DNA of 64,000 nucleotides, taken from positions 744,001 through 808,000 of the forward strand of contig NW_027480544.1 in NCBI RefSeq assembly GCF_051401765.1, given 5' to 3'. Positions within the stretch are counted from its first letter, which is position 1; each line of letters opens with the position of its first letter. Made by a program: the position numbers and the translations under genes. This document shows positions 34,581 to 57,590 of the stretch, in pieces. Below the pieces are notes generated by a model. That model was not told where the DNA came from and made no database searches. It saw nothing but the letters and a program-made list of their open reading frames with translations. The DNA comes from Calliopsis andreniformis. Lineage: Eukaryota; Arthropoda; Insecta; Hymenoptera; Andrenidae.

Positions 34581-37500
34581 AGACTGAGTATTGAGGATTG
34601 ATGATTGAGGATTGAGGATTGCGGACTGAGGATTGAGGATTGAAGATTGAGCATTGAGGATTGAAGATTGAGGACTGGTTATTGAGGATTGAAGATTGAG
34701 GATTAAGGATTGAGGATTGGGGATTGAGGATCTAGGATTGAGGATTGAGGACTGAGGAATGAAGATTGAGGACTGAGTGTTGAGGGTTGAGTGATGAGAA
34801 TTGATGTCTGTGGATTGAGATTTGAAGTTTGAAGATTGAGGATTGAGTATTGAAAACTGTGAATTGAGGATATTCTATTGAGGATTGAGGATTGGCAATT
34901 GATTGTTGCGGACTGAGGGATGAAGATTGAGCATTCAGGACTGAGGATTCGGAATTGAGGTTTGAGGACTGAGGATTGAGGGTTCAGGATTGAGGATTGA
35001 GGATTGACGCTTGAGGATAGAGAATTGAGGATGGAGGATTGAAGAGAGAGGACCGAGTGTTGAGGATTGAGTGTTGAGAATTGATGTTTGCGGGTTGAGA
35101 TTTGATTATTGAATATTGTGGATTGAGTACTGAATCATGAGAATTCGGGTTATTCTATTGAGTATTGAGAATTGAGGATTGATGGTTGAGTATTGAGAAT
35201 TGATGGTTGATGGTTGTGTGTTGAATATTGAGGATTGAGGGTTGAGGATTTAGGATTGAGAATTGAGGATTGAAGATTGAGGGTTGGGGATTGAGGATTG
35301 AGGATTGAGGATTGAGAATCGAAGATTGAGTATCGAGGATTGAAGATTGAGGTTTGAGGATTGAGTATTGAGGATTGAGGTTGGAGGATGAGGGCTGAGG
35401 GTTGAGGATTTAGGTTTGAGTATTGAATACTGAGAATTCAGGATATTCTATTGAGTATTGAGAATTGAGGATTGATGGTTGAGTATTGAGGATTGAGGAT
35501 TGAGTATTGAGGATTGAAGATTGAGGTTTGAGGATTGAGAATTGAGAATTGAGTATGAGGACTGAGGGTTGAGGATTGAGGTTTGAGGAACGAGGATTGA
35601 GGATTGAGAATTGAGGACTGAGGATTCACGATTGAGTATTGAAGATTGAGGATTGATGACTGAGGATTGAGTATTGAGGATTGACGATTGAGGATTGAGG
35701 ATTGAAGATTGAGTATTGAGGATTGAGGATGAGGGCTGAGGGCTGAGGTTTGAGGTTTGAGGACTGAGGACAGAGGATTGAGGATTGAGAATTGAGGATG
35801 GAGGATAGAGGATTGAGGATTGAGGATTGGGTATTGAGGATTGAAGAATGAGAATTGACGATTGTGGATTGAGTATTGAGGTTTGAAGATTGAGTATTGA
35901 GGATTGAAGGTTGATGATTCAGGATTGAGGATGGATGATTGAGGATTGAGGATTGAGGATTGAGGATTGAGGGTTGAAGATTGAGTATTGAGGATTGAAG
36001 ATTGAGTATTGATGATTGAATATTGAGGATTGAGGATTCATAGTTGAGGATTGAGGACGAGGACTGACGGTTGAGGATTGAGGTATGAGGATTGAGGATT
36101 GAGGACTGAGGACTGAGGACTCAGGTTTGAGGATTGAGGACTGAGGATTGAGGATCGAATGTTGAGTATTGAGGATTGAAGGTTGAGGATTGATGATTGA
36201 GGATTGAGGATGGAGCATGAGGACTGAGGATTGAGGATTTTGGATTGAGGATTGAGGATGGAGGATGAGGGCTGAGGGTTGAGGATTGAGGTTTGAGTAT
36301 TGAATCCTGAGTATTCAGGATATTCTATTGAGTATTGGGATTTGAGGATTGATGGTTGAGTATTGAGGATTGAGGATTGATGATTGAGAATTGTGGATTG
36401 AGGATTGAGGATTGAGTATTGAGGATTGAGGATTGAGGATTGAGGGTTGTGGACTGAGGACGAGGACTGACGGTTGAGGATTGAGGATTGATGTTTGAGG
36501 ATTGAGGATTGAGGACTGAGGATTGAGGATTGAGGATTGAGCATTGAGGATTGAAGATTGAAGACTGGGGATTGAGGATTGAAGATTGAGGATTAAGTAT
36601 TGAGGATTGGGGATTGAGGATCTAGGATTGAAGATTGAGGACTGCGGATTGACGATTGAGTATTGAAGATTGAGGACTGATGACTGAGGATTGAGGATTG
36701 AGGATTGAGGATTGAAGATTGAAGATTGAGTATTGAGGATTGAAGGTTGAGGATTGAAGATTGAGTATTGATGATGGAGAATGAGGGCTGAGGGTTGAGG
36801 ATTGGAGTTTGAGTATTCAATCCTGAGAATTCAGGATATTCTATTGAGTATTGAGAATTGAGGATTGATGGTTGAGTATTGAGTATTGAGAATTGAGGAT
36901 TGAGGATTGAGTTTTGAAGATTGAGTATTTATGATTGAGGATTGAGTATTGAGGATTGAGGATTGAAGATTGAGGACTGAGTGTTGTGGGTTGAGTGATG
37001 ATAATAGATGTTTGTGGATGGAGACATGAAGATTGAAGATTGAGGATTGAGTATTGAAAACTGAGAATTCAGGATATTCTATTGAGTATTGAGTATTGAG
37101 AATTGAGGATTGATGGTTGAGTATTGAGAATTGATGGTTGATGGTTGTGTGTTGAATATTGGGGATTGAGTGTTGATGATTTAGGATTGAGAATTGAGGA
37201 TTGAAGATTGAGGATTGTGGATTGAGGATTGACGATTGAGGATTGAGAATCGAAGATTGAGTAACGAGGATTGAAGATTGAGGTTGGAGGATTGAGGATT
37301 GAGGACTGAGGTTGGAGGATGAGGGCTGAGGGTTGAGGATTTAGGTTTGAGTATTGAATACTGAGAATTCAGGATATTCTATTGAGTATTGAGAATTGAG
37401 GATTGATGGTTGAGTATTGAGGATTGAGGATTGAGTATTGAGGATTGAAGATTGAGGTTTGAGGATTGAGAATTGAGAATTGAGTATGTGGACTGAGGGT

Positions 37501-40500
37501 TGAGGATTGAGGTTTGAGGAACGAGGATTGAGGATTGAGAATTGAGGACTGAGGATTCACGATTGAGTATTGAAGATTGAGGATTGATGACTGGGGATTG
37601 AGTATTGAGGATTGACGATTGAGGATTGAGGATTGAAGATTGAGCATTGAGGATTGAGGATGAGGGCTGAGGGTTGAGGTTTGAGGTTTGAGGACTGAGG
37701 ACAGAGGATTGAGGATTGAGAATTGAGGATGGAGGTTAGAGGATTGAGGATTGAGGATTGGGTATTGAGGATTGAAGAATGAGGATTGACGATTGTGGAT
37801 TGAGTATTGAGGTTTTAAGGTTGAGTATTGAGGACTGAAGGTTGATGATTCAGGATTGAGGATTGAAGAATGAGAATTGACGATTGAGGATTGAGTATTG
37901 AGGATTGAAGATTGAGTATTGAGGATTGAAGGTTGATGATTCAGGATTGAGGATTGAGGATGAGGGCTGCGGGTTGAGGATTGAGGTTTGAGGACTGAGG
38001 ACAGAGGATTGAGGATTGAGAATTGAGGATGGAGGATTGAGGATTGAGGATTGAGGATTGTGTATTGAGGATTGAAGAATGAGGATTGACGATTGAGGTT
38101 CGAGTATTGAGGATTGAAGATTGAGTATTGAGGATTGAAGGTTGATGATTGAATATTGCGGATTGATGATTGAGTATTGAGGATTGAGGATTGAGGATTG
38201 AGGATTGATGATTGAAGACTGAGTATTGAGGATTGAAGATTGAGGATTGAGAATTCAGGATCCAAGATTGAGTATCGAGGATTGAAGATTGAGGTTTGAG
38301 GATTGAGGGTTGAGGATTGAGGATGGAGGATGAGGGCTGAGGGTTGAGGATTGAGGTTTGAGTATTGAATACTGAGAATTCACGATATTCTATTGAGTAT
38401 TGAGAATTGAGGATTGAGGATTGGGTATTGAGGATTGAAGATTGAGGTTTGAGGATTGAGAATTGAGAATTGAGTATGAGGACTGAGGGTTGAGGATTGA
38501 GGTATGAGGAACCAGGATTGAGGATTGAGAATTGAGGAATCAGAATTGACGATTGAGTATTGAAGATTGAGGATTGATGACTGAGGATTGAGGATTGAGG
38601 ATTGAGGATTGAGGATTGAGGATTGAGGATTGTAGATTGAGTATTGAGGATTGAGGATGAGGGCTGAGGGTTGAGGGTTGAGGTTTGAGGACTGAGGACA
38701 GAGGATTGAGGATTGAGAATTGAGGATGGAGGATAGAGGATTGAGGATTGAGGATTGAGGATTGAGGATTGAAGATTGAGTATTGAGGATTGAGGATGAG
38801 GGCTGAGGGTTGATGGTTGAGGTTTGAGGACTGAGGATTGAGGGTTGAGGATTGAGGATTGAGGATTGACGCTTGAGGATAGAGGATTAAGAATGGAGGA
38901 TTGAAGAGAGAGGACCGACTGTTGAGGATTGAGTCTTGAGAATTGATGTTTGAGGGTTGAGATTTGATTATTGAATATTGTGGATTGAGTATTGAATCAT
39001 GAGAATTCGGGATACTCTATTGAGTATTGAGAATTGAGGATTGATGGTTGAGTATTGAGAATTGATGGTTGACGGTTGTGTGTTGAATATTGAGGATTGA
39101 GGTTTGAGGATTTAGGATTGAGAATTGAGGATTGAAGATTGAGTATTAATGATTGAAGGTTGAGGATTGAGGATTGAGGGTTGAGGATTAAGGACGTGGA
39201 CTGACGGTTGAGGATTGAAGATTGACCATTGAGAATTGAGGATTGAGGATTGAGGATTGAGGATTGAGGATTGAGGGCTGAAGCTTGAGGAATGGGTATT
39301 GAGTATTGAAGAAACAGGATTGAGGATTGAGGACTGAGGATTGCAGATTGAGTATCGAGGATTGAAGACTGACGCTTGAGGATTGAGGATTGAGGATTGG
39401 GGATTGAGGATTGAGAATTGAATATTGAGTAGTGAGGATTGAAGATTGAGTATTGACGATTGAATATTGAGGATTGAGGATTCGTAGTTGAGGATTGAGG
39501 ACGAGGACTGACGGTTGAGGATTGAGGTATGAGGATTGAGGATTGAGGATTGAGGATAAGGGCTGCGGGTTGAGGATTGAGGTTTGAGGACTGAGGACAG
39601 AGGATTGAGGATTGAGAATTGAGGATGGAGGATTGAGGATTGAGGATTGAGGATTGTGTATTGAGGATTGAAGAATGAGGATTGACGATTGATGTTCGAG
39701 TATTGAGGATTGAAGATTGAGTATGGAGGATTGAAGGTTGATGACTGAATATTGCGGATTGATGATTGAGTATTGAGGATTGAGGATTGAGGATTGAGGA
39801 TTGATGATTGAAGACTGAGTATTGAGGATTGAAGATTGAGGATTGAGAATTGAGGATCCAAGATTGAGTATCGAGTATTGAAGATTGAGGTTTTAGGATT
39901 GAGGGTTGAGGATTGAGGATGGAGGATGAGGGCTGAGGGTTGAGGATTGAGGTTTTAGTATTGAATACTGAGAATTCAGGATATTCTATTGAGTATTGAG
40001 AATTGAGGATTGAGGATTGGGTATTGAGGATTCAAGATTGAGGTTTGAGGATTGAGAATTGAGAATTGAGTATGAGGACTGAGGGTTGAGGATTGAGGTA
40101 TGAGGAACCAGGATTGAGGATTGAGAATTGAGGAATGAGAATTGACGATTGAGTATTGAAGATTGAGGATTGATGACTGAGGATTGAGGATTGAGTATTG
40201 AGGATTGAGGATTGAGGATTGTAGATTGAGTATTGAGGATTGAGGATGAGGGCTGAGGGTTGAGGGTTGAGGTTTGAGGACTGAGGACAGAGGATTGAGG
40301 ATTGAGAATTGAGGACGGAGGATAGAGGATTGAGGAATGAGGATTGAGGATTGAGGATTGAAGATTGAGTATTGAGGATTGAGGATGAGGGCTGAGGGTT
40401 GAGGGTTGAGGTTTGAGGACTGAGGATTGAGGGTTGAGGATTGAGGATTGAGGATTGACGCTTGAGGATAGAGGATTGAGAATGGAGGATTGAAGAGAGA

Positions 40501-40860
40501 GGACCGACTGTTGAGGATTGAGTCTTGAGAATTGATGTTTGAGGGTTGAGATTTGATTATTGAATATTGTGGATTGAGTATTGAATCATGAGAATTCGGG
40601 ATATTCTATTGAGTATTGAGAATTGAGGATTGATGGTTGAGTATTGAGAATTGATGGTTGACGATTGTGTGTTGAATATTGAGGATTGAGGTTTGAGGAT
40701 TGAGGATTGAGAATTGAGGATTGAAGATTGAGTATTAATGATTGAAGATTGAGGATTGAGGATTGAGGGTTGAGGATTAAGGACGAGGACTGACGGTTGA
40801 GGATTGAAGGTTGACCATTGAGAATTGAGGATTGAGGATTGAGGATTGAGGATTGAGGAT
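34581..40860 (+). repeat. Mosaic copy of 4.6-6.5 kb joined to a copy of 22.6-27.2 kb
   Basis: The first part (boxes t2 34861, t3 35141, t4 35434, t5 36311) matches 4833-6283 at 30,028 bp and carries the 481-bp segment that 22.6 kb lacks. From about 35726 it also matches the 22.6-24.4 kb block at 13,106 bp (t5 36311, t6 36827, t7 37065, t4 37365). After the 579-bp segment it matches at 13,685 bp (t4 38376, t3 39003, t4 39972, t3 40592). Near 40861 it switches to the 12,674-bp register of the 28.2-31.3 kb block. Confidence 0.85.
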
Positions 40861-41226
40861 TGAGGACTGAGGATTGGGGATTGAGGACTGAGGATTGACG
40901 ATTGATTATTGAGCTTTGGGGATTGAAGGTTGTGGACTGGGGATAGAGGATTGAATATTGAGGATTAAGGATAGAGTATCGGAGATTTAGGATCTAGGAC
41001 AGGAGATTGATTATTGAGGATTGAAGAGTGAGGATTGAGGATTGAGGATTGATGATTGAGGATTGAGGATTGAAGATTGAGTATGGAGGATTGAAGATGG
41101 AGGATTGAGTATTAAGGATTGAGGATTGAAGATTGAGGACTGAGTGTTGAGGGTTTAGTGATGAGAATTGATGTTTGTGGATTGAGATTTGAAGATTGAG
41201 ATTGGGGATTTAGCATTGAAACATGA

Positions 41227-43980
41227 GAATTCAGGATATTCTATTGAGTATCGAGAATTGAGGATTGATGTTTGAATATTGGTGATTGATGGTTGAGGGT
41301 TGAGTGTTGAATATTGAGGATTGAGGATTGTGGATTGAGGATTGAAGATTGAGTATTGATGATTGAGGATTGAGGGTTGAGGGTTGCGGACTGAGGATTG
41401 AGGATTGAAGATTGAGCATTGAGGATTGAAGATTGAGGACTGGTTATTGAGGATTGAAGATTGAGGATTAAGGATTGAGGATTGGGGATTGAGGATCTAG
41501 GATTGAGGATTGAGGACTGCGGATTGAAGATTGAGGACTGAGTGTTGAGGGTTGAGTGATGAGAATTGATGTGTGTGGATTGAGATTTGAAGTTTGAAGA
41601 TTGAGGATTGAGTATTGAAAACTGTGAATTGAGGATATTCTATTGAGGATTGAGGACTGACAATTGATTGTTGCGGACTGAGGGATGAAGATTGAGCATT
41701 CAGGGCTGAGGATTCGGAATTGAGGTTTGAGGACTGAGGATTGAGGGTTCAGGATTGAGGATTGAGGATTGACGCTTGAGGATAGAGAATTGAGGATGGA
41801 GGATTGAAGAGAGAGGACCGAGTGTTGAGGATTGAGTGTTGAGAATTGATGTTTGCGGGTTGAGATTTGATTATTGAATATTGTGGATTGAGTATTGAAT
41901 CATGAGAATTCGGGTTATTCTATTGAGTATTGAGAACTGAGGATTGATGGTTGAGTATTGAGAATTGATGGTTGATGGTTGTGTGTTGAATATTGAGGAT
42001 TGAGGGTTGAGGATTTAGGATTGAGAATTGAGGATTGAAGATTGAGGATTGGGGATTGAGGATTGAGGATTGAGGATTGAGAATCGAAGATTGAGTATCG
42101 AGGATTGAAGATTGAGGTTTGAGGATTGAGGATTGAGGATTGAGGTTGGAGGATGAGGGCTGAGGGTTGAGGATTTAGGTTTGAGTATTGATTACTGAGA
42201 ATTCAGGATATTCTATTGAGTATTGAGAATTGAGGATTGATGGTTGAGTATTGAGGATTGAGGATTGAGTATTGAGGATTGAAGATTGAGGTTTGAGGAT
42301 TGAGAATTGAGAATTGAGTATGAGGACTGAGGGTTGAGGATTGAGGTTTGAGGAACGAGGATTGAGGATTGAGAATTGAGGACTGAGGATTCACGATTGA
42401 GTATTGAAGATTGAGGATTGATGACTGAGGATTGAGTATTGAGGATTGACGATTGAGGATTGAGGATTGAAGATTGAGTATTGAGGATTGAGGATGAGGG
42501 CTGAGGGTTGAGGTTTGAGGTTTGAGGACTGAGGACAGAGGATTGAGGATTGAGAATTGAGGATGGAGGATAGAGGATTGAGGATTGAGGATTGGGTATT
42601 GAGGATTGAAGAATAAGAATTGACGATTGTGGATTGAGTATTGAGGTTTGAAGATTGAGTATTGAGGATTGAAGGTTGATGATTCAGGATTGAGGATTGA
42701 TGATTGAGGATTGAGCATTGAGGATTGAGGATTGAGGATTGAAGATTGAGTATTGAGGATTGAAGATTGAGTATTGATGATTGAATATTGAGGATTGAGG
42801 ATTCATAGTTGAGGATTGAGGACGAGGACTGACGGTTGAGGATTGAGGTATGAGGATTGAGGATTGAGGATTGAGGACTGAGGACTCAGGTTTGAGGATT
42901 GAGGACTGAGGATTGAGGATCGAATGTTGAGTATTGAGGATTGAAGGTTGAGGATTGAGGATTGAGGATTGAGGATGGAGCATGAGGACTGAGGATTGAG
43001 GATTTTGGATTGAGGATTGAGGATGGAGGATGAGGGCTGAGGGTTCAGGATTGAGGTTTGAGTATTGAATCCTGAGTATTCAGGTTATTCTATTGAGTAT
43101 TGAGATTTGAGGATTGATGGTTGAGTATTGAGGATTGAGGATTGGTGATTGAGAATTGAGGATTGAGGATTGAGGATTGAGGATTGAGGATTGAGGATTG
43201 AGGATTGAGGGTTGTGGACTGAGGACGAGGACTGACGGCTGAGGATTGAGGATTGATGTTTGAGGATTGAGGATTGAGGACTGAGGATTGAGGATTGAGG
43301 ATTGAGTATTGAGGATTGAAGGTTGAGGATTGAGGATTGAGTATTGATGATGGAGAATAAGGGCTGAGGGTTGAGGATTGGGGTTTGAGTATTGAATCCT
43401 GAGAATTCAGGATATTCTATTGAGTATTGAGAATTGAGGATTGATGGTTGAGTATTGAGGATTGAGAATTGAGGATTGAGGATTGAGTTTTGAAGATTGA
43501 GTATTGATGATTGAGGATTGAGTATTGAGGATTGAGGATTGAAGATTGAGGACTGAGTGTTGAGGGTTGAGTGATGATAATTGATGTTTGTGGATGGAGA
43601 CATGAAGATTGAAGATTGAGGATTGAGTATTGAAAACTGAGAATTCAGGATATCCTATTGATTATTGAGTATTGAGTATTTAGGATTGAGGATTGAGGAC
43701 GAGGACTGACGGTTGAGGATTGAGGTTTGAGTATTGAGGATCGAGGATTGAGGACTGAGGATTGGGAATTGAGGACTGAGGATTGACGATTGATTATTGA
43801 GCTTTGGGGATTGAAGATTGTGGACTGGGGATAGAGGATTGAATATTGAGGATTAAGGATAGAGTATCGGAGATTGAGGGTCTAGGACAGGAGATTGATT
43901 ATTGAGGATTGAAGAGTGAGGATTGAGGATTGAGGATTGAAGGATTGAGGATTGAGGATTGAAGATTGAGTATGGAGGAT
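41227..43980 (+). repeat. HOR unit t1 to t7, copy of 28553-31306
   Basis: Boxes t1 41227, t2 41626, t3 41906, t4 42199, t5 43076, t6 43403 and t7 43641 are each exactly 12,674 bp after those of the 28553 unit, so essentially no net indels separate the two over 2.7 kb. The match begins upstream of the first box, near 40861 (against 28187). It stops near 43990-44000, where the sequence switches to a copy of about 33680 onward, so the next t1 box is missing here. Confidence 0.85.
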
Positions 43981-45468
43981 TGAAGATTGAGGATTGAGGA
44001 TTGAGGATTGAGGATTGAGGATTGATGATCGAAGACTGAGTATTGAGGATTGAAGATTGAGGATTGAGGATGAGGGCTGAGGGCTGAGGGTTGAGGGTTG
44101 ACGTTTGAGGACTGAGGACAGAGGATTGAGGATTGAGAATTAAGGATGGAGGATAGAGGATTGATGATTGAGGATTGGGTATTGAGGATTGAAGAATGAG
44201 AATTGACGATTGTGGATTGAGCATTGAGGTTTGAAGATTGAGTATTGAGGATTGAAGGTTGATGATTGAGAATTGATTATTGAGGATTGAGGATTGAGGA
44301 TTGAGGATTGATGATTGATGATTGAGAACTGAGGATTGAGGATTGAAGATTGAGGATTGAGGACTCAGGATTGAGGATTGAGATTGAGGGCTGAGGGTTG
44401 AGGATTGAGGTTTGAGGACTGAGGACTGAGGATTGAGGATTGAGAATTGAGGATGGAGGATTGAGGATTGAGGATTGAGGATTGGGTATTGATGATTGAA
44501 GAATGAGGATTGACGATTGAGGATTGAGTATTGAGGATTGAAGATTGAGTATTGAGGATTGAAGGTTGATGATTCAGGATTGAGGATTGAGGATGAGGGC
44601 TGAGGGTTGAGGATTGAGGTTTGAGGACTGAGGACAGAGGATTGAGGATTGAGATTTGAGAATGGACGATTGAGGATTGAGGATTGAGGATTGTGTATTC
44701 AGGATTGAAGAATGAGGGTTGACAATTGAGGATTGAGTATTGAGGATTGAAGATTGAGTATTGAGGATTGAAGTTTGATGATTGAATATTGAGGACTGAT
44801 GATTGAGGATTGAGGATTGAGGATTGAGGATTGAGGATTGATGATTGAAGACTGAGTATTGAGGATTGAAGATTGAGGATTGAGGATTGAGGATTGAGGA
44901 TTGAGGATTGATGATCGAAGACTGAGGATTGAGGATTGAAGATTGAGGATTGAGGATTCAGGATTGAGGATTGAGGATGAGGGCTGAGGGTTGAGGATTG
45001 GGGTTTGAGTATTGAATCCTGAGAATTCAGGATATTCTATTGAGTATTGAGAATTGAGGACTGACGGTTGAGGATTGAGGTTTGAGTATTGAGGATTGAG
45101 GATTGAGGACTGAGGATTGGGATTGAGGACTGAGGATTGACGATTGATTATTGAGCTTTGGGGATTGAAGATTGTGGACTGGGGATAGAGGATTGAATAT
45201 TGAGGATTAAGGATAGAGTATCGGAGATTTAGGATCTAGGACAGGAGATTGATTATTGAGGATTGAAGAGTGAGGATTGAGGATTGAGGATTGATGATTG
45301 AGGATTGAGGATTGAAGATTGAGTATGGAGGATTGAAGATTGAGGATTGAGGATTAAGGATTGAGGATTGAAGATTGAGGACTGAGTGTTGAGGGTTGAG
45401 TGATGAGAATTGATGTTTGTGGATTGAGATTTGAAGATTGAGATTGGGGATTTAGCATTGAAACATGA
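43981..45468 (+). repeat. Chimeric joint between box-free satellite and HOR
   Basis: From about 44000 to 44890 this matches 33680-34570 (offset 10,324 bp). Around 44960-45010 it passes to a segment with t6 (45023) and marker (45153) that resembles 3830-4310 and 21230-21710. It then runs into the reference HOR at 45469. Two copy-choice switches therefore occur within 1.5 kb. Confidence 0.75.
45145..45245 (+). repeat. Marker segment GAGCTTTGGGG (one of 17 copies)
   Basis: A conserved string of unusual heptamers is marked by GAGCTTTGGGG (here 45153; TTTGCGG in two copies). It is followed by GTGGACTGGGGATAGAGG and the words TTAAGGA and TAGAGTA. Marker positions: 387, 861, 1427, 2447, 3528, 3995, 14347, 15702, 19850, 20931, 21398, 28237, 31125, 40911, 43799, 45153 and 48319. 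Where a t1 box follows directly it lies 316 or 317 bp downstream (2447, 3995, 14347, 19850, 21398, 28237, 31125, 40911, 45153, 48319). None occurs after 48319, or between 4 and 14 kb. Confidence 0.85.
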
Positions 45469-45490
45469 GAATTCAGGATATTCTATTGAG
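45461..45490 (+). repeat. Box type t1 (reference copy)
   Basis: The t1 box is GAATTCAGG preceded by ACATGA or CCATGA, and followed downstream by TATCGAG in most copies. GAATTC (or equivalent) positions: 2764, 4311 (GAATTT), 7247 (degenerate, GGATTC), 13191, 14663, 16165, 20167, 21714 (GAATTT), 28553, 31442, 41227, 45469, 48635, 53162 and 60539. It is preceded by GATTTAGCATTGAA in most copies. It was chosen as the HOR start because it is the easiest type to recognise. Confidence 0.85.
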
Positions 45491-45961
45491 TATCGAGAAT
45501 TGAGGATTGATGTTTGAATATTGGTGATTGATGGTTGAGGGTTGAGTGTTGAACATTGAGGATTGAGGATTGTGGATTGAGGATTGAAGATTGAGTATTG
45601 ATGATTGAGGATTGAGGGTTGAGGGTTGAGGATTGAGGACGAGGGCTGACGGTTGAGGATTGAGGTTTGAGATTGAGGATTGAGGGCTGAGGATTGAGGA
45701 CGAGGACAGACGGTTGAGGATTGAGGATTGATGATTGAGGATTGAGGATTGCGGACGGAGGATTGAGGATTGGAGATTGAGCATTGAGGATTGAAGATTG
45801 AGGACTGGTTATTGAGGATTGAAGATTGAGGATTAAGGATTGAGGATTGGTGATTGAGGATCTAGGATTGAAGATTGAGGACTGAGTGTTGAGGGTTGAG
45901 TGATGAGAATTGATGTGTGTGGATTGAGATTTGAAGTTTGAAGATTGAGGATTGAGTATTG

Positions 45962-45991
45962 AAAACTGTGAATTGAGGATATTCTATTGAG
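45962..45991 (+). repeat. Box type t2 (reference copy)
   Basis: The t2 box is the most eroded type: AAAACTGTGAATTGAGG replaces the EcoRI-like hexamer, while GATATTCTATTGAGG is kept. Positions of the GAATTG word: 4833, 9493, 13713, 16687, 22236, 28952 (GAAGTG), 31964, 34861, 41626, 45970 and 49157 (GAGTTG). It lies 399 to 522 bp after t1 and about 280 bp before t3. None is seen after 49157. Confidence 0.85.
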
Positions 45992-46241
45992 GATTGAGGA
46001 CTGACAATTGATTGTTGCGGACTGAGGGATGAAGATTGAGCATTCAGGACTGAGGATTCGGAATTGAGGTTTGAGGACTGAGGATTGAGGGTTCAGGATT
46101 GAGGATTGAGGATTGACGCTTGAGGATAGAGAATTGAGGATGGAGGATTGAAGAGAGAGGACCGAGTGTTGAGGATTGAGTGTTGAGAATTGATGTTTGC
46201 GGGTTGAGATTTGATTACTGAATATTGTGGATTGAGTATTG

Positions 46242-46271
46242 AATCATGAGAATTCGGGTTATTCTATTGAG
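46242..46271 (+). repeat. Box type t3 (reference copy)
   Basis: The t3 box has AATCATGAGAATTCGGG, with GGG where other types have AGG. It occurs in two forms, followed by TTATTCT (the HOR form) or ATATTCT/ATACTCT (the t4/t3 sub-array form). Positions: 5113, 13993, 18402, 22516, 25318, 26907, 29232, 32244, 35141, 39003, 40592, 41906, 46250, 49437 and 50371. Confidence 0.85.
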
Positions 46272-46534
46272 TATTGAGAATTGAGGATTGATGGTTGAGT
46301 ATTGAGAATTGATGGTTGATGGTTGTGTGTTGAATATTGAGGATTGAGGGTTGAGGATTTAGGATTGAGAATTGAGGATTGAAGATTGAGGATTGGGGAT
46401 TGAGGATTGAGGATTGAGGATTGAGAATCGAAGATTGAGTATCGAGGATTGAAGATTGAGGTTTGAGGATTGAGGATTGAGGATTGAGGTTGGAGGATGA
46501 GGGCTGAGGGTTGAGGATTTAGGTTTGAGTATTG

Positions 46535-46564
46535 AATACTGAGAATTCAGGATATTCTATTGAG
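46535..46564 (+). repeat. Box type t4 (reference copy)
   Basis: The t4 box has AATACTGAGAATTCAGG and is the commonest type. Positions: 54, 3077, 5406, 15081, 17775, 19371, 20480, 24259, 24691, 26287, 29525, 32537, 35434, 37365, 38376 (GAATTCACG), 39972, 42199, 46543, 49730, 54703 and 61556. In the HOR it is 291-293 bp after t3. In the sub-arrays at 17-19, 24-27 and 38-41 kb it alternates with t3. Confidence 0.85.
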
Positions 46565-47411
46565 TATTGAGAATTGAGGATTGATGGTTGAGTATTGAGG
46601 ATTGAGGATTGAGTATTGAGGATTGAAGATTGAGGTTTGAGGATTGAGAATTGAGAATTGAGTATGAGGACTGAGGGTTGAGGATTGAGGTTTGAGGAAC
46701 GAGGATTGAGGATTGAGAATTGAGGACTGAGGATTCACGATTGAGTATTGAAGATTGAGGATTGATGACTGAGGATTGAGTATTGAGGATTGACGATTGA
46801 GGATTGAGGATTGAAGATTGAGTATTGAGGATTGAGGATGAGGGCCGAGGGTTGAGGTTTGAGGTTTGAGGACTGAGGACAGAGGATTGAGGATTGAGAA
46901 TTGAGGATGGAGGATAGAGGATTGAGGATTGAGGATTGTGTATTGAGGATTGAAGAATAAGAATTGACGATTGTGGATTGAGTATTGAGGTTTGAAGATT
47001 GAGTATTGAGGATTGAAGGTTGATGATTCAGGATTGAGGATTGATGATTGAGGATTGAGGATTGAGGATTGAGGATTGAGGATTGAAGATTGAGTATTGA
47101 GGATTGAAGATTGAGTATTGATGATTGAATATTGAGGATTGAGGATTCATAGTTGAGGATTGAGGACGAGGACTGACGGTTGAGGATTGAGGTATGAGGA
47201 TTGAGGATTGAGGATTGAGGACTGAGGACTCAGGTTTGAGGATTGAGGACTGAGGATTGAGGATCGAATGTTGAGTATTGAGGATTGAAGGTTGAGGATT
47301 GAGGATTGAGGATTGAGGATGGAGCATGAGGACTGAGGATTGAGGATTTTGGATTGAGGATTGAGGATGGAGGATGAGGGCTGAGGGTTCAGGATTGAGG
47401 TTTGAGTATTG

Positions 47412-47441
47412 AATCCTGAGTATTCAGGATATTCCATTGAG
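47412..47441 (+). repeat. Box type t5 (reference copy)
   Basis: The t5 box has AATCCTGAGTATTCAGG, with GTATTC in place of GAATTC. Positions of GTATTC: 1847, 6283, 23205, 27659, 30402, 36311, 43076, 47420, 51122 and 59429. It keeps a perfect 7-bp dyad, ATCCTGA / TCAGGAT, around the 4-bp centre GTAT. The reference copy has ATTCCATT where most copies have ATTCTATT. Confidence 0.85.
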
Positions 47442-47914
47442 TATTGAGATTTGAGGATTGATGGTTGAGTATTGAGGATTGAGGATTGGTGATTGAGAAT
47501 TGAGGATTGAGGATTGAGGATTGAGGATTGAGGATTGAGGGTTGTGGACTGAGGACGAGGACTGACGGTTGAGGATTGAGGATTGATGTTTGAGGATTGA
47601 GGATTGAGGACTGAGGATTGAGGATTGAGGATTGAGCTTTGAGGATTGAAGATTGAGGACTGGGGATTGAGGATTGAAGATTGAGGATTAAGGATTGAGG
47701 ATTGGGGATTGAGGATCTAGGATTGAGGATTGAGGACTGCGGATTGACGATTGAGTATTGAAGATTGAGGATTGATGACTGAGGATTGAGGATTGAGGAT
47801 TGAGGATTGAAGATTGAAGATTGAGTATTGAGGATTGAAGGTTGAGGATTGAAGAATTGAGTATTGATGATGGAGAATAAGGGCTGAGGGTTGAGGATTG
47901 GGGTTTGAGTATTG

Positions 47915-47944
47915 AATCCTGAGAATTCAGGATATTCTATTGAG
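47915..47944 (+). repeat. Box type t6 (reference copy) with perfect 7-bp dyad
   Basis: The t6 box has AATCCTGAGAATTCAGG. The 18 bases ATCCTGAGAATTCAGGAT form a perfect dyad: arms of 7 bp around GAAT. Positions of GAATTC: 730, 3864, 21267, 23721, 28106, 30729, 36827, 43403, 45023, 47923, 51569, 52617 and 59994. The dyad could form a short hairpin or a binding site for a dimer. No known factor matches by eye. Confidence 0.85.
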
Positions 47945-48152
47945 TATTGAGAATTGAGGATTGATGGTTGAGTATTGAGGATTGAGAATTGAGGATTGAG
48001 GATTGAGTTTTGAAGATTGAGTATTGATGATTGAGGATTGAGTATTGAGGATTGAGGATTGAAGATTGAGGACTGAGTGTTGAGGGTTGAGTGATGATAA
48101 TTGATGTTTGTGGATGGAGACATGAAGATTGAAGATTGAGGATTGAGTATTG

Positions 48153-48182
48153 AAAACTGAGAATTCAGGATATTCTATTGAG
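48153..48182 (+). repeat. Box type t7 (reference copy)
   Basis: The t7 box has AAAACTGAGAATTCAGG. Positions: 940, 1248, 15411, 23959, 30967, 37065, 43641, 48161, 52855 and 60232. The copies at 30967 and 43641 read ATATCCTATT instead of ATATTCTATT, a shared change that agrees with their 12,674-bp duplication. Intact HOR units place it 238 bp after t6. Confidence 0.85.
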
Positions 48183-48634
48183 TATTGAGTATTGAGTATT
48201 GAGGATTGAGGATTGAGGACGAGGACTGACGGTTGAGGATTGAGGTTTGAGTATTGAGGATTGAGGATTGAGGACTGAGGATTGGGAATTGAGGACTGAG
48301 GATTGGCGATTGATTATTGAGCTTTGGGGATTGAAGATTGTGGACTGGGGATAGAGGATTGAATATTGAGGATTAAGGATAGAGTATCGGAGATTGAGGA
48401 TCTGGGACAGGAGATTGATTATTGAGGATTGAAGAGTGAGGATTGAGGATTAAGGATTGATGATTGAGGATTGAGGATTGAAGATTGAGTATGGAGGATT
48501 GAAGATTGAGGATTGAGGATTAAGGATTGAGGACTGAAGATTGAGGACTGAGTGTTGAGGGTTGAGTGATGGGAATTGATGTTTGTGGATTGAGATTTGA
48601 AGATTGAGATTGGGGATTTAGCATTGAACCATGA

Positions 48635-51600
48635 GAATTCAGGATATTCTATTGAGTATCGAGAATTGAGGATTGATGTTTGAATATTGGTGATTGATGG
48701 TTGAGGGTTGAGTGTTGAATATTGAGGATTGAGGATTGTGGATTGAGGATTGAAGATTGAGTATTGTTGATTGAGGATTGAGGGTTGAGGGTTGAGAATT
48801 GAGGACGAGGGCTGGCGGTTGAGGATTGAGGTTTGAGATTGAGGATTGAGGGCTGAGGATTGAGGACGAGGACAGACGGTTGAGGATTGAGGATTGATGA
48901 TTGAGGATTGAGGATTGCGGACTGAGGATTGAGGATTGAAGATTGAGCATTGAGGATTGAAGATTGAGGACTGGCTATTGAGGATTGAAGATTGAGGATT
49001 AAGGATTGAGGATTGGGGATTGAGGATCTAGGATTGAGGATTGAGGACTGCGGATTGAAGATTGAGGACTGAGTGTTGAGGGTTGAGTGATGAGAATTGA
49101 TGTCTGTGGATTGAGATTTGAAGTTTGAAGATTGGGGATTGAGTATTGAAAACTGTGAGTTGAGGATATTCTATTGAGGATTGAGGATTGACAATTGATT
49201 GTTGCGGACTGAGGGATGAAGATTGAGCATTCAGGACTGAGGATTCGGAATTGAGGTTTGAGGACTGAGGATTGAGGGTTCAGGATTGAGGATTGAGGAT
49301 TGACGCTTGAGGATAGAGAATTGAGGATGGAGGATTGAAGAGAGAGGACCGAGTGCTGAGGATTGAGTGTTGAGAATTGATGTTTGCGGGTTGAGATTTG
49401 ATTATTGAATATTGTGGATTGAGTATTGAATCATGAGAATTCGGGTTATTCTATTGAGTATTGAGAATTGAGGATTGATGGTTGAGTATTGAGAATTGAT
49501 GGTTGATGGTTGTGTGTTGAATATTGGGGATTGAGGGTTGAGGATTTAGGATTGAGAATTGAGGATTGAAGATTGAGGATTGTGGATTGAGGATTGACGA
49601 TTGAGGATTGAGAATCGAAGATTGAGTAACGAGGATTGAAGATTGAGGTTTGAGGATTGTGGATTGAGGATTGAGGTTGGAGGATGAGGGCTGAGGGTTG
49701 AGGATTTAGGTTTGAGTATTGAATACTGAGAATTCAGGATATTCTATTGAGTATTGAGAATTGAGGATTGATGGTTGAGTATTGAGGACTGAGGATTGAG
49801 TATTGAGGATTGAAGATTGAGGTTTGAGGATTGAGAATTGAGAATTGAGTATGAGGACTGAGGGTTGAGGATTGAGGTTTGAGGAACGAGGATTGAGGAT
49901 TGAGAATTGAGGACTGAGGATTCACGATTGAGTATTGAAGATTGAGGATTGATGACTGAGGATTGAGTATTAAGGATTGACGATTGAGGATTGAGGATTG
50001 AAGATTGAGTATTGAGGATTGAGGATGAGGGCTGAGGGTTGAGGTTTGAGGTTTGAGGACTGAGGACAGAGGATTGAGGATTGAGAATTGAGGATGGAGG
50101 ATAGAGGATAGAGGATTGGGGATTGAGGATTGAGGATTGAAGGTTGAGTATTGAGGATTGAGGATGAGGGCTGAGGGTTGAGGGCTGAGGTTTGAGGACT
50201 GAGGATTGAGGGTTGAGGATTGAGGATTGAGGATTGACGCTTGAGGATAGAGGATTGAGAATGGAGGATTGAAGAGAGAGGACCGACTGTTGAGGATTGA
50301 GTCTTGAGAATTGATGTTTGAGGGTTGAGATTTGATGATTGAATATTGTGGATTGAGTATTGAATCATGAGAATTCGGGATATTCTACTGAGAATTGAGA
50401 ATTGAGGATTGATGGTTGAGTATTGAGAATTGATGGTTGACGGTTGTGTGTTGAATATTGAGGATTGAGGTTTGAGGATTTAGGGTTGAGAATTGAGGAT
50501 CGAAGATTGAGTATTAATGATTGAAGATTGAGGATTGAGGATTGAGGGTTGAGGATTAAGGACGAGCACTGACGGTTGAGGATTGAAGATTGACCATTGA
50601 GAATTGAGGATTGAGGGTTGAGGATTGAGGATTGATGATTGAGGGCTGAAGCTTGAGGAATAGGTATTGAGTATTGAAGAAACAGGATTGAGGATTGAGG
50701 ACTGAGGATTGCAGATTGAGTATTGAGGATTGAAGACTGACGCTTGAGGATTGAGGATTGAGGATTGGGGTTGAGGATTGAGGATTGAAGATTGAGTAGT
50801 GAGGATTGAAGATTGAGTATTGATGATTGAATATTGAGGATTGAGGATTCGTAGTTGAGGATTGAGGACGAGGACTGACGGTTGAGGATTGAGGTATGAG
50901 GATTGAGGATTGAGGATTGAGGACTGAGGGCTCAGGTTTGAGGATTGAGGACTGAGGATTGAGGATCGAATGTTGAGTATTGAGGATTGAAGGTTGAGGA
51001 TTGAGGATTGAGGATTGAGGATGGAGCATGAGGACTGAGGATTGAGGATTTTGGATTGAGGATTGAGGATGGAGGTTGAGGGCTGAGGGTTGAGGATTGA
51101 GGTTTGAGTATTGAATCCTGAGTATTCAGGATATTCTATTGAGTATTGAGATTTGAGGATTGATGGTTGAGTATTGAGGATTGAGGATTGAGGACTGAGT
51201 ATTGAAGATTGAGGATTGATGATTGAGAATTGAGGATTGAGGATTGAGGATTGAGGATTGAGGATTGAGTATTGAGGATTGAGGGTTGTGGACTGGGGAT
51301 TGAGGATTGAATATTGAGGATTAAGGATTGAGGATTGGGGATTGAGGATCTAGGATTGAGGATTGAGGACTGCGGATTGACGATTGAGTATTGAAGATTG
51401 AGGATTGATGACTGAGGATTCAGGATTGAGGATTGAGGTTTGAGGATTGAGGATTGAAGATTGAAGATTGAGTATTGAGGATTGACGGTTGAGGATTGAG
51501 GATTGAGTATTGATGATGGAGAATGAGGGCTGAGGGTTGAGGATTGGGGTTTGAGTATTGAATCCTGAGAATTCAGGATATTCTATTGAGTATTGAGAAT

Positions 51601-53161
51601 TGAGGATTGATGGTTGAGTATTGAGGATTGAGAATTGAGGATTGAGGATTGAGTTTTGAAGATTGAGTATTGATGATTGAGGATTGAGTATTGAGGATTG
51701 AGGATTGATAATTGAGGACTGAGGATTGACGATTGAGTATTGAAGATTTAGGATTGATGACTGAGGATTGAGGATTGAGGATTGAGGATTGAGGATTGAG
51801 GATTGAAGACTGAGTATTGAGGATTGAGGATTGAAGATTGAGGATTGAGTATTGAAGACTGAGGATTGATGATTGAGGATTGAGGATTGAGGATTGAGGA
51901 TTGAGGATTGAAGATTGAGGATTGTGTATTCAGGATTGAAGAATGAGGGTTGACAATTGAGGATTGAGTATTGAGGTTTGAAGATTGAGTATTGAGGATT
52001 GAATGTTGATGATTGAATATTGAGGATTGATGATTGAGGATTGAGGATTGAGGATTGAGGATTGAGGATTGATGATTGAAGACTGAGTATTGAGGATTGA
52101 AGATTGAGGATTGAGGATTGAGGATTGAGGATTGAGGATTGATGATCGAAGACTGAGTATTGAGGATTGAAGATTGAGGATTGAGGATTCAGGATTGAGG
52201 ATTGAGGATGAGGGCTGAGGGCTGAGGGTTGAGGGTTGACGTTTGAGGACTGAGGACAGAGGATTGAGGATTGAGAATTAAGGATGGAGGATTGAGGACT
52301 GAGGATTGAGGATTGAGTATTGAGGATTGAGGGTTGTGGACTGGGGATTGAGGATTGAAGATTGAGGATTAAGGATTGAGGATTGGGGATTGAGGATCTA
52401 GGATTGAGGATTCAGGACTGCGGATTGACGATTGACTATTGAAGATTGAGGATTGATGACTGAGGATTCAGGATTGAGGATTGAGGTTTGAGGATTGAGG
52501 ATTGAAGATTGAAGATTGAGTATTGAGGATTGAAGGTTGAGGATTGAGGATTGAGTATTGATGATGGAGAATGAGGGCTGTGGGTTGAGGATTGGGGTTT
52601 GAGTATTGAATCCTGAGAATTCAGGATATTCTATTGAGTATTGAGAATTGAGGATTGATGGTTGAGTATTGAGAATTGAGAATTGAGGGTTGAGGATTGA
52701 GTTTTGAAGATTGAGTATTGATGATTGAGGATTGAGTATTGAGGATTGAGGATTGAAGATTGAGGACTGAGTGTTGAGGGTTGAGTGATGATAATTGATG
52801 TTTGGGGATGGAGACATGAAGATTGAAGATTGAGGATTGAGTATTGAAAACTGAGAATTCAGGATATTCTATTGAGTATTGAGTATTGAGTATTGAGGAT
52901 TGAGGATTGAGGATTGAGTATTGAAGATTGAGGACTGATGATTGAGGACTGAGGATTGAGGATTGAGGATTGAGGATTGAGTTTTGAAGATTGAGGATTG
53001 ATGATTGAGGATTGAGGATTGAGGATTGAGGATTGAGGATTGAGGATTGAAGATTGAGGATTGAGGATTGAGGATTGAGTGTTGAGGGTTGAGTGATGAG
53101 AATTGATGTTTGTGGATTGAGATTTGAAGATTGAGATTGGGGATTTAGCATTGAACCATGA
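48635..53161 (+). repeat. Expanded HOR unit, t1 to t7 with inserted HOR material
   Basis: Box order is t1 48635, t2 49157, t3 49437, t4 49730, then an extra t3 at 50371, t5 51122, t6 51569, a second t6 at 52617, and t7 52855, ending at t1 53162. The first part (to about 50095) matches 31442 onward at an offset of 17,193 bp. The part from about 50137 to 51700 matches about 26670-28170 at offsets of 23,463-23,464 bp between boxes, so a different lineage was joined at about 50100. The t2 box here reads GAGTTG. Confidence 0.75.
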
Positions 53162-54775
53162 GAATTCAGGATATTCTATTGAGTATCGAGAATTGAGGAT
53201 TGATGTTTGAATATTGGTGGTTGAAGGTTGAGGGTTGAGTGTTGAATATTGAGGATTGAGGATTGTGGATTGAGGATTGAAGATTGAGTATTGATGATTG
53301 AGGATTGAGGGTTGAGGGTTGAGGATTGAGGACGAGGCCTGACGGTTGAGGATTGAGGTTTGAGATTGAGGATTGAGGGCTGAGGATTGAGGACGAGGAC
53401 AGACGGTTGAGTATTGAGGATTGAGGACTGAGGACAGAGGATTGAGGATTGACAATTGAGGATGGAGGATTGAGGATTGAGGATTGAGGATTGTGTATTG
53501 AGGATTGAAGAATGAGGATTGACGATTGAGGTTCGAGTATTGAGGATTGAAGATTGAGTATTGAGGATTGAAGGTTGATGATTGAATATTGAGGATTGAT
53601 GATTGAGTATTGAGGATTGAGGATTGAGGATTGAGGATTCATGGTTGAAGACTGGGTATTGAGGATTGAAGATTGAGGATTGAGGATTGAGGATTGAGGA
53701 TTGAGGATTGATGATTGAAGACTGAGTATTGAGGATTGAAGATTGAGGATTGAGGATTGAGGATTGAGGTTTGAGAATTGATAATCGAAGATTGAGTATT
53801 GAGGATTGAAGATTGAGGTTTGAGGATTGAGGATTGTGGATTGTGGATTGAGGATTGAGGGTGGAGGATTGAGGATCGAAGTTTGAGTATTGAGGATTGA
53901 AGGTTGAGGTTTGAGGATTGAGGATTGAGTGTGGAGGATGAGGGCTGAGGGTTGTGGATTGAGGATTGAGGATTGACGCTTGAGGATAGAGGATCGAGGA
54001 TGGAGGATTGAAGGCTGAGTATTGAGGATTGAAGATTGAGGATTGAGGATTCAGGATTGAGGTTTGAGGATGAGGGCTGAGGGTTGAGGATTGAGGATTG
54101 AGGATTGAGGATTGAGGATTGAGGATTGAGGATTGAAGACTGAGTATGGAGGGTTGAGGATTGAGGTTTGAGGAACGAGGATTGAGGATTGAGAATTGAG
54201 GACTGAGGATTGACGATTGAGTATTGAAGATTTAGGATTGATGACTGAGGATTGAGGATTGAGGATTGAGGATTGAGGATTGAGGATTGAGGATTGAAGA
54301 CTGAGTATTGAGAATTGAGGATTGAGGATTGAGGATTGAGTATTGAAGACTGAGGATTGATGATTGAGGATTGAGGATTGAGGTTTGAGGATTGAGGATT
54401 GAGGGTTGAAGACTGAGTATTGAGGATTGAAGATTGAGGATTGAAGATTGAGGATTGAGGGTTGAGGATTGAGTGTTGAAGATCGAGGATTGATGATTGC
54501 AGATTGAGGATTGAGGATTGAGGATTGAGGATTGACGATTGAAGATGGAGGATTGGGGATTGAGGATTGAGGATTGAGGATTGAGAATCGAAGATTGAGT
54601 ATCGAGGATTGAAGATTGAGGTTTGAGGATTGAGGATTGAGGATTGAGGATGGAGGATGAGGGCTGAGGGTTGAGGATTGAGGTTTAAGTATTGAATACT
54701 GAGAATTCAGGATATTCTATTGAGTATTGAGAATTGAGGATTGATGGTTGAGTATTGAGGATTGAGGGTTGAGTA

Positions 54776-57590
54776 TTGAGGATTGAAGATTGAGGTTTGA
54801 GGATTGAGAATTGAGAATTGAGTATGAGGACTGAGGGTTGAGGGTTGAGGTATGAGGAACGAGGATTGAGGATTGAGAATTGAGGAATGAGGATTGACGA
54901 TTGAGTATTGAAGATTGAGGATTGATGACTGAGGATTGAGGATTGAGGATTGAGGATTGAGGATTGAGGATTGAAGATTGAGTATTGAGGATTGAGGATG
55001 AGGGGTGAGGGTTGTGGGTTGAGGTATGAGGACTGAGGACAGAGGATTGAGGATTGAGAATTGAGGGTGGAGGATAGAGGATTGGGGATTGAGGATTGGG
55101 TATTGAGGATTGAAGAATGAGAATTGACGATTGTGGATTGAGTATTGAGGTTTGAAGATTGAGTATTGAGGATTGAAGGTTGATGATTGAGAATTGATTA
55201 TTGAGGATTGAGGATTGAGGATTGAGGATTGATGATTGATGATTGAGAACTGAGGATTGAGGATTGAAGACTGAGGATTGAGGACTCAGGATTGAGGATT
55301 GAGGATGAGGGCTGAGGGTTGAGGATTGAGGTTTGAGGACTGAGGACTGAGGATTGAGGATTGAGAATTGAGGATGGAGGATTGAGGATTGAGGATTGAG
55401 GATTGGGTATTGATGATTGAAGAATGAGGATTGACGATTGAGGATTGAGTATTGAGGATTGAAGATTGAGTATTGAGGATTGAAGGTTGATGATTCAGGA
55501 TTGAGGATTGAGGATGAGGGCTGTGGGTTGAGGATTGAGGTTTGAGGACTGAGGACAGAGGATTGAGGATTGAGATTTGAGGATGGACGATTGAGGATTG
55601 AGGATTGAGGATTGTGTATTCAGGATTGAGGAATGAGGGTTGACAATTGAGGATTGAGTATTGAGGATTGAAGATTGAGTATTGAGGATTGAAGGTTGAT
55701 GATTGAATATTGAGGATTGATGATTGAGGATTGAGGATTGAGGATTGAGGATTGAGGATTGATGATTGAAGACTGAGTATTGAGGATTGAAGATTGAGGA
55801 TTGAGGATTGAGGATTGAGGATTGAGGATTGATGATCGAAGACTGAGTATTGAGGATTGAAGGTTGAGGATTGAGGATTCAGGATTGTGGATTGAGGATG
55901 AGGGCTGAGGGCTGAGGGTTGAGGGTTGACGTTTGAGGACTGAGGACAGAGGATTGAGGATTGAGAATTAAGGATGGAGGATAGAGGATTGAGGATTGAG
56001 GATTGGGTATTGAGGATTGAAGAATGAGAATTGACGATTGTGGATTGAGCATTGAGGTTTGAAGATTGAGTATTGAGGATTGAAGGTTGATGATTGAGAA
56101 TTGATTATTGAGGATTGAGGATTGAGGATTGAGGATTGAGGATTGATGATTGAGAACTGAGGATTGAGGATTGAAGGTTGAGTATTGAGGATTCAGGATT
56201 GAGGATTGAGAATGAGGGCTGAGGGTTGAGGATTGAGGTTTGAGGACTGAGGACTGAGGATTGAGGATTGAGAATTGAGGATGGAGGATTGAGGATTGAG
56301 GATTGAGTAATGGGTATTGAGGATTGAAGAATGAGAATTGACGATTGTGGATTGAGTATTGAGGTTTGAAGATTGAGTATTGAGGATTGAAGGTTGATGA
56401 TTGAGGATTGAGGATTGATGATTGAGGATTGAGGATTGAGGATTGAAGATTGAGGTTTGAGGATTGAGAATTGAGAATTGAGTATGAGGACTGAGGGTTG
56501 AGGGTTGAGGTATGAGGAACGAGGATTGAGGATTGAGAATTGAGGAATGAGGATTGACGATTGAGTATTGAAGATTGAGGATTCATGACTGAGGATTGAG
56601 GATTGAGGATTGAGGATTGAGGATTGAGGATTGAAGATTGAGTATTGAGGATTGAGGATGAGGGGTGAGGGTTGAGGGTTGAGGTATGAGGACTGAGGAC
56701 AGAGGATTGAGGATTGAGAATTGAGGGTGGAGGATAGAGGATTGGGGATTGAGGATTGGGTATTGAGGATTGAAGAATGAGAATTGACGATTGTGGATTG
56801 AGTATTGAGGTTTGAAGATTGAGTATTGAGGATTGAAGGTTGATGATTGAGAATTGATTATTGAGGATTGAGGATTGAGGATTGAGGATTGATGATTGAT
56901 GATTGAGAACTGAGGATTGAGGATTGAAGACTGAGGATTGAGGACTCAGGATTGAGGATTGAGGATGAGGGCTGAGGGTTGAGGATTGAGGTTTGAGGAC
57001 TGAGGACTGAGGATTGAGGATTGAGAATTGAGGATGGAGGATTGAGGATTGAGGATTGAGGATTGGGTATTGATGATTGAAGAATGAGGATTGACGATTG
57101 AGGATTGAGTATTGAGGATTGAAGATTGAGTATTGAGGATTGAAGGTTGATGATTCAGGATTGAGGATTGAGGATGAGGGCTGTGGGTTGAGGATTGAGG
57201 TTTGAGGACTGAGGACAGAGGATTGAGGATTGAGATTTGAGGATGGACGATTGAGGATTGAGGATTGAGGATTGTGTATTCAGGATTGAGGAATGAGGGT
57301 TGACAATTGAGGATTGAGTATTGAGGATTGAAGATTGAGTATTGAGGATTGAAGGTTGATGATTGAATATTGAGGATTGATGATTGAGGATTGAGGATTG
57401 AGGATTGAGGATTGAGGATTGATGATTGAAGACTGAGTATTGAGGATTGAAGATTGAGGATTGAGGATTGAGGATTGAGGATTGAGGATTGATGATCGAA
57501 GACTGAGTATTGAGGATTGAAGGTTGAGGATTGAGGATTCAGGATTGTGGATTGAGGATGAGGGCTGAGGGCTGAGGGTTGAGGGTTGGC
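54776..57590 (+). repeat. Displaced direct duplication, offset 1,660 bp
   Basis: About 54776-55930 recurs at 56436-57590 with a constant 1,660-bp offset. Landmarks are AGGGGTGAGG (55001 and 56661) and AGGATTGTGG (55881 and 57541). The copies are separated by about 500 bp of other satellite. Both ends fade into consensus heptamers, so exact boundaries are uncertain by tens of bases. Confidence 0.85.

What the first reader, a model, noticed from the sequence alone, without database searches (positions are those of the whole stretch)
45469..48634. A 3,166-bp higher-order repeat with seven distinct box types in fixed order
Types t1 to t7 appear once each in order at 28553-31441, 41227-43641 (next t1 lost) and 45469-48634. 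Insertion-modified or partial forms follow the same order at 4311-6283, 31442-32537, 48635-53161 and 59429-60539. A simple 7-bp repeat has acquired a kilobase-scale hierarchy, comparable in logic to alpha-satellite HORs but from a much smaller unit.
Basis: seen in the sequence. Interest (0 to 1): 0.75.

Follow-up and report, generated by a model that had tools for sequence, protein, structure and literature searches.

The report
Heptamer satellite with local higher-order repeats
A huge satellite built from a 7-base word carries a real repeating block of seven marked segments about 3.2 kb long, much like known human satellites built from a 5-base word, so it is a good new example of a known kind.

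Summary
The whole window is one GAGGATT array with 95 copies of a 22-bp box. Typed by 200 bp of flank, they follow the cyclic order t1-t7 in 54 of 94 steps (shuffles 13.2 ± 3.4), with complete cycles at exactly the three stated places. The box is diverged heptamers in register and varies as much as its flanks (26/1540 vs 299/15680, p = 0.62).

Here the HOR is a mosaic of 1.3-3.2 kb duplicates at 97-99.8%. A tandem form with a 3,201-bp unit lies on contig C167, and the 3,166-bp copy aligns to it full length at 98.2%. The t4 marker has 63 exact genome copies. In 16 other 10-kb samples the order, pooled, is not above chance (31 of 166; shuffles 26.6), although a t2-t3 doublet recurs.

Best reading: neutral unequal exchange and segmental amplification inside a satellite of well over 100 Mb (11 of 40 random points; 136-178 Mb by box density) in a 1.02-Gb genome, probably an aculeate hymenopteran. 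Human HSat2 and HSat3/DYZ1 are direct precedents.

The parts
4..64000 (+). GAGGATT heptamer satellite array; the whole window is one tandem array
   Evidence: TRF: one row, period 7, 9176 copies, 75% matches, 1% indels
45469..48634 (+). complete seven-box HOR copy (3,166 bp), t1 to t7
   Evidence: typed; aligns full length at 98.2% to a 3,201-bp unit on contig C167 (L085)
28553..31441 (+). complete seven-box HOR copy (2,889 bp, short t1-t2 interval of 399 bp)
41227..45022 (+). third complete t1-t7 run (boxes 41227-43641), followed by a box at 45023 that ties between t5 and t4 instead of t1
   Evidence: 28172-31328 = 40846-44002 at 99.6%
48635..53161 (+). expanded HOR: t1,t2,t3,t4,t3,t5,t6,t6,t7
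4311..6304 (+). partial HOR t1-t5
31442..32558 (+). partial HOR t1-t4
34861..37086 (+). partial HOR t2-t7
59429..60560 (+). partial HOR t5,t6,t7,t1
45469..45490 (+). box t1, GAATTCAGGATATTCTATTGAG
45970..45991 (+). box t2 (GAATTG variant)
46250..46271 (+). box t3 (CGGGTT variant)
46543..46564 (+). box t4
47420..47441 (+). box t5 (GTATTC variant)
47923..47944 (+). box t6
48161..48182 (+). box t7

Best explanation
The window lies inside a megabase-scale 7-bp satellite, (GAGGATT)n, of a 1.02-Gb genome, probably an aculeate hymenopteran. Shown: the 'box' is the centre of roughly twelve diverged heptamers kept in register, and this older segment exists in many copies with different flanks. Shown: one arrangement of seven such segments, about 3.2 kb, has been copied as a unit, in tandem on contig C167 and as a mosaic here. 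Shown: sampled stretches elsewhere have other leading repeat offsets, and sequence sharing is highest next to the window. Inferred: in-register unequal exchange and segmental duplication or conversion turn over blocks of about 1-3 kb, so domains of some 45-120 kb grow their own HORs by chance, without selection on the box. How the same HOR family came to lie on several contigs (exchange between chromosomes, old shared ancestry, or two haplotypes in one assembly) is not resolved.
For: Order 54/94 vs 13.2 ± 3.4. Self-diagonals at 97-99.8%, the 45 longest 1.3-3.2 kb; no minus-strand hit among the 5,000 that BLAST returned, which is its cap. On C167 the type string is 12343 234567 1234567 1234, and 6 of 14 gaps between exact t4 markers are exactly 3,201 bp. 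Of 46 exact t3 markers, 37 have t4 at 277 bp (32) or 284 bp (5; one heptamer more), on 10 contigs. Exact markers: t4 63, t3 46, t1 391, against 65,614 for the shorter 22-bp box; marker lengths differ (43, 48, 38 bp), and the t1 marker misses the ACATG form that the three full copies carry. Pooled order not above shuffling in 16 other samples (31/166 vs 26.6 ± 3.8); the leading repeat offset differs in all 16. 40-mer sharing with the window 0.95 and 0.90 next door, 0.22-0.82 in the other 14. Box variation equals flank variation.
Against: The same HOR family on at least 10 contigs needs transfer between arrays, or haplotype duplicates, besides local exchange. Not everything is local: t2-t3 pairs at the HOR's own 280-bp spacing occur nine times in five of the 16 samples (L009, L014, L017, L021, L024), L024 being on contig C10, so that doublet is older and wider than the HOR; and next-door L017 holds t1-t2-t3, t5-t6 and t6-t7 pieces. 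Offsets near 2,005-2,012 bp recur in L013, L019, L020 and L022. Sharing does not fall evenly with distance: L016 (34 kb upstream) 0.58, L014 (234 kb upstream) 0.82, L019 (92 kb downstream) 0.45. No reads were available, so assembly error is not excluded. The neutrality test has modest power (26 box variants; pair-ratio range 0.63-1.35).
Confidence: 0.75

Rival explanations
1. The box is a functional motif, like the CENP-B box, and the HOR keeps it because a protein binds it.
For: A core from about -27 to +56 around the box is shared by the seven type consensuses while further flanks are less so; 65,614 exact copies genome-wide, none for the reversed control; a short dyad GAAT...ATTC can be read in the box (sequence itself).
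Against: Within types the box varies as much as its flanks (26/1540 vs 299/15680, p = 0.62; pair ratio 1.17 over all loci, 1.23 in the window, 0.93 outside it, bootstrap 0.63-1.35). Box spacing is irregular, 210 to 4,726 bp in the window. The shared core is also what an old duplicated segment would leave. The dyad is broken in t5.
Confidence: 0.08
2. The 3.2-kb HOR spread between arrays through extrachromosomal circles or rolling-circle copies that reinserted and seeded fresh expansions of 45-120 kb.
For: Stretches of the HOR region match C167, C108 and C237 at 97-99% in different arrangements; t4 markers cluster on C108, C135, C167 and C237 (45 of 63), the rest scattered over 11 contigs.
Against: No circle junction or insertion scar was looked for; ordinary exchange between chromosomes, or two haplotypes in the assembly, would look the same.
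Confidence: 0.15
3. The apparent HOR and mosaic are products of misassembly of a simple repeat.
For: Contig C135 is satellite at 14 of 14 sampled places and no reads could be checked.
Against: The t3-t4 spacing of 277 or 284 bp occurs on 10 contigs; copies differ by substitutions and by one-heptamer steps.
Confidence: 0.05
4. Boxes are insertions (a mobile element or its ends) into the heptamer array.
For: The box departs strongly from GAGGATT.
Against: It reads in register as GAGAATT CAGGATA TTCTATT GAGTATT between heptamers (sequence itself), with no added length.
Confidence: 0.01

Closest known systems
Human satellites 2 and 3 (HSat2 1.77-kb unit on chromosome 1; HSat3/DYZ1 3.6-kb unit on Y)
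   Same: Simple-word satellite whose diverged copies are organised into kilobase units and subfamilies, typically in heterochromatin next to centromeres (passages of PMC4022460).
   Different: 5-bp word (CATTC) against 7-bp GAGGATT; the human units define multi-megabase arrays, whereas t4-marked clusters here span about 45-120 kb.
Alpha-satellite HORs
   Same: Diverged units in fixed order, near-identical multi-unit copies.
   Different: Not built from about 171-bp monomers (recalled); the units here are variable stretches of heptamers between boxes; centromere role untested; no constraint seen on the box.
Drosophila virilis 7-bp satellites
   Same: Heptanucleotide satellites with a large genome share (over 40% by older gradient work; passages of PMC6922343).
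   Different: Those three differ from each other by single substitutions (same passages); I recall no kilobase HOR described in them, and did not search for one.
Xylocopa violacea heterochromatin satellites
   Same: 1.02-Gb bee genome with 80% masked as repeats (PMC11589580, abstract, passages and repeat section).
   Different: Predominant monomer there 109 bp (or 217 bp) and telomere reported as TTAGG; here 7-, 117-, 166- and 374-bp units were sampled, telomere TTAGGTCTGGG, 489 contigs against 1300 scaffolds; not shown to be the same species.

Membership tests
Higher-order repeat (general) | constituent units clearly diverged from one another | tested here: met
   73-89% flank identity among the seven types
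Higher-order repeat (general) | multi-unit copies nearly identical | tested here: met
   3157 bp at 99.6% in the window; 98.2% across contigs
Higher-order repeat (general) | HOR copies in head-to-tail tandem array | tested here: inconclusive
   in the window only short tandem pairs; met on C167 with 3,201-bp steps
Higher-order repeat (general) | seven separable unit types | tested here: inconclusive
   reference typing works; blind clustering fuses t4/t5/t6 and splits others
HSat2/3 family proper | CATTC-derived sequence | tested here: not met
   unit is GAGGATT
HSat2/3-like simple-word satellite with kb units | short word plus kilobase unit plus local subfamilies | tested here: met
HSat2/3-like simple-word satellite with kb units | pericentromeric heterochromatin | tested here: inconclusive
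   on C10 satellite at the sampled points up to 4.0 Mb, other sequence at 5, 6, 8, 10 and 17 Mb, telomere at the far end; no FISH or Hi-C
Alpha satellite | about 171-bp monomer (recalled) | tested here: not met
   7-bp period
CENP-B-box-like functional motif | motif more conserved than neighbouring DNA | tested here: not met
   modest power
CENP-B-box-like functional motif | protein binding | not testable with these tools
   needs binding or ChIP data

The most novel reading that the evidence does not exclude
The seven-box 3.2-kb unit is a self-spreading amplicon: a HOR that arose once in a 7-bp satellite, was carried to arrays on several chromosomes, and seeds new local expansions, so that a satellite of well over 100 Mb is a patchwork of competing, recently amplified HOR founders caught at early stages.
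Probability: 0.15. Interest if true: 0.6.

Novelty: new member of a known kind. Interest (0 to 1): 0.36.

Why it matters
It gives an example, independent of the human one, of how a word of a few bases grows kilobase hierarchies. One genome holds a mosaic stage (window), a tandem stage (C167) and stretches with other repeat offsets. Shared markers order the layers (a wide t2-t3 doublet, a confined t1-t7 unit), so models of satellite growth by unequal exchange can be tested on one assembly. It also shows that a striking 'box' in such an array need not be a functional motif.

Tried and rejected
Rejected: mobile insertion (box is in heptamer register); protein-coding repeat (the minus-strand heptamer AATCCTC has no stop in any frame, so long minus ORFs are mechanical; all 22 listed ORFs of 150 aa or more are minus); functional box (no constraint seen); boxes as exchange hot spots (4 of 138 segment ends within 50 bp of a box against 14.9% of random points; ends near boxes are pushed outward by the shared core, so this shows only no enrichment).

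Led nowhere: low-stringency BLAST self-comparison gave mainly background alignments near 80% among the longest rows. Species identification by ribosomal RNA did not complete. Paper searches did not identify the satellite or species: a GAGGATT satellite (one paper, on rice tandem repeats), a heptamer HOR in bees (no paper holds all five terms), general heptamer, HOR and satellitome searches (20 rows listed each, none on such a case by title), a 1.02-Gb hymenopteran (the only hymenopteran genome among 15 rows listed of 174 is Xylocopa violacea, which does not fit). Subscription papers are not held. No match in the phage collection, as expected.

Papers: PMC11589580 abstract, passages and repeat section; PMC4022460, PMC6922343 and PMC10632776 passages only; PMC9841428 passages only (its main text does not hold the motif TTAGGTCTGGG); PMC13081366 abstract and outline. 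Others only in search listings.

Full report
What is there. The window is G000:C135:744001-808000, in a 1.42-Mb contig of a 1,019,246,659-base, 489-contig assembly. It is one continuous 7-bp tandem array, consensus GAGGATT, 75% matches and 1% indels, with 24,214 G and 2,067 C in 64,000 bases. The 14 sampled 10-kb stretches of C135 are all the same satellite. On contig C10 it was seen at each sampled point from the start to 4.0 Mb and not at 5, 6, 8, 10 or 17 Mb; that contig's far end is a telomere of TTAGGTCTGGG. A second estimate, 65,614 boxes divided by box density in the samples, gives 136-178 Mb, so the share lies somewhere between about an eighth and a quarter, with a wide margin. Telomeres of this motif, seen at sampled ends of C5, C10, C16, C21, C22 and C23, are reported from many aculeate Hymenoptera (passage of PMC10632776). 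An aculeate is therefore likely; the species is not identified.

The observation. Boxes (GAATTCAGGATATTCTATTGAG, up to 3 mismatches) number 95, of which 49 exact; the mismatch histogram is empty at 4 before background starts at 5. With the 45469 copy as reference, the types run cyclically in 54 of 94 steps against 13.2 ± 3.4 (maximum 28) in 20,000 shuffles, with three complete runs at the stated coordinates. Intervals such as t2-t3 = 280, t3-t4 = 293 and t6-t7 = 238 bp recur across copies. Blind clustering is less tidy: t4, t5 and t6 form one group at k = 7, and the silhouette is highest at 15, the largest number tried. Between-type identities (t4/t5/t6 86-89%, t1/t3 85%, t2/t7 83%) suggest that the seven types arose by earlier duplications.

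The box. Read in phase it is GAGAATT CAGGATA TTCTATT GAGTATT, heptamers with no added bases. Across types the shared core runs from about -27 to +56, about twelve heptamers: an old duplicated segment. Within types the box varies at 26 of 1540 base positions and its flanks at 299 of 15,680 (p = 0.62; 70 of 95 boxes used, those below 0.93 identity to their reference or without full flank left out). Over 455 duplicate pairs in the window and 19 other loci the box/outside ratio is 1.17 (window 1.23, others 0.93), with a bootstrap range of 0.63-1.35. There is no sign of constraint.

Dynamics. Five of the strongest self-matches are 3157 bp at 99.6%, 2911 bp at 99.7%, 2848 bp at 99.5%, 2697 bp at 99.5% and 2198 bp at 99.8%, at offsets of 6.9 to 20.6 kb; tandem matches near one unit (2888, 3166) are shorter than the unit. 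So the window is a patchwork of duplicated blocks, not a regular HOR array.

Beyond the window. The exact t4 marker occurs 63 times on 15 contigs, most on C108 (12), C135 (8, all within this window), C167 (15) and C237 (10); the t3 marker occurs 46 times on 12 contigs. The t1 marker, which misses one variant, occurs 391 times, of which the first 100 places were listed. In 37 of 46 cases t4 follows t3 at 277 or 284 bp, on 10 contigs. On C167 the unit is a tandem of 3,201 bp, and 45469-48634 aligns to it over its full length at 98.2%; C108 shows partial cycles and C237 a t1-t4 run. These three loci, chosen for carrying t4, have 39 of 54 steps in cyclic order (7.9 ± 2.6 by shuffling). By contrast, 16 stretches of 10 kb chosen by place (14 on C135, 2 on C10) pooled show 31 of 166 against 26.6 ± 3.8; 16% of their 182 boxes match any type at 0.93 or better, and the leading repeat offset differs in all 16. 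Against a purely local picture, t2-t3 pairs at exactly 280 bp occur nine times in five of these samples, including one on C10, L017 next to the window holds short ordered pieces, and offsets of about 2,005-2,012 bp recur in four samples. The stretches next to the window share 0.95 and 0.90 of their sequence with it as 40-mers; three at 34-234 kb upstream share 0.58-0.82, and the other eleven 0.22-0.63.

Mechanism. These facts fit neutral growth by in-register unequal exchange and segmental duplication, with domains fixing their own HORs over an older shared stock of doublets and boxes. That the same HOR sits on several contigs needs exchange between arrays, or reflects haplotypes; this is not resolved. 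The patterns are shown; the process is inferred.

Comparison. Human HSat2 and HSat3/DYZ1 are the closest in kind: a 5-bp word with 1.77-kb and 3.6-kb units (passages of PMC4022460). The present case differs in word, host and the confined HOR clusters. It is filed as a new member of the kind 'simple-word satellite with kilobase higher-order units', not as a member of the HSat or alpha-satellite families. In the searches made I saw no report of this satellite; most rows were seen only as titles and abstract openings.

Noticed in passing
window 6922-8457 (-) and the other ORFs: All 22 listed ORFs of 150 aa or more are on the minus strand, up to 511 aa; the minus-strand heptamer AATCCTC has no stop in any frame, so they are an artefact of the repeat.
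   Followed up: partly
C135 between about 1.01 and 1.20 Mb (L020, L021); C10 between 3.0 and 3.5 Mb (L046, L047): The satellite flips strand inside contigs, reminiscent of the macro-dyad symmetries reported for Tribolium (PMC13081366, abstract).
   Followed up: no
window 7246-13191 and 54703-59429: Box-poor stretches inside the array; the second holds a local 1,660-bp repeat (54775-56095 against 56435-57755, 99.1%).
   Followed up: no
L010, L013, L018, L023: Other leading repeat offsets in the same satellite: 1429, 2005, 1086 and 4873 bp.
   Followed up: partly
L009, L014, L017, L021, L024: A t2-t3-like doublet at exactly 280 bp recurs nine times outside the window, including contig C10, mostly at lower identity; it looks like an older, wider layer.
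   Followed up: no
L026, L037, L042 and random points: Further satellites in the genome: 117-bp, 166-bp (12 of 40 random points) and 374-bp units; also GCCATA-like (L071, L117) and ATTATG-like (L030, L104) simple arrays.
   Followed up: partly
L029, L035, L052, L054, L075, L076: Telomeres of 11-bp TTAGGTCTGGG at contig ends.
   Followed up: partly
C108 and C135 t4 markers: The t4-t4 step of 1,931 bp recurs on C108 (twice) and in the window (once), and 5,340 bp twice on C108, so larger blocks seem shared between and within contigs.
   Followed up: no
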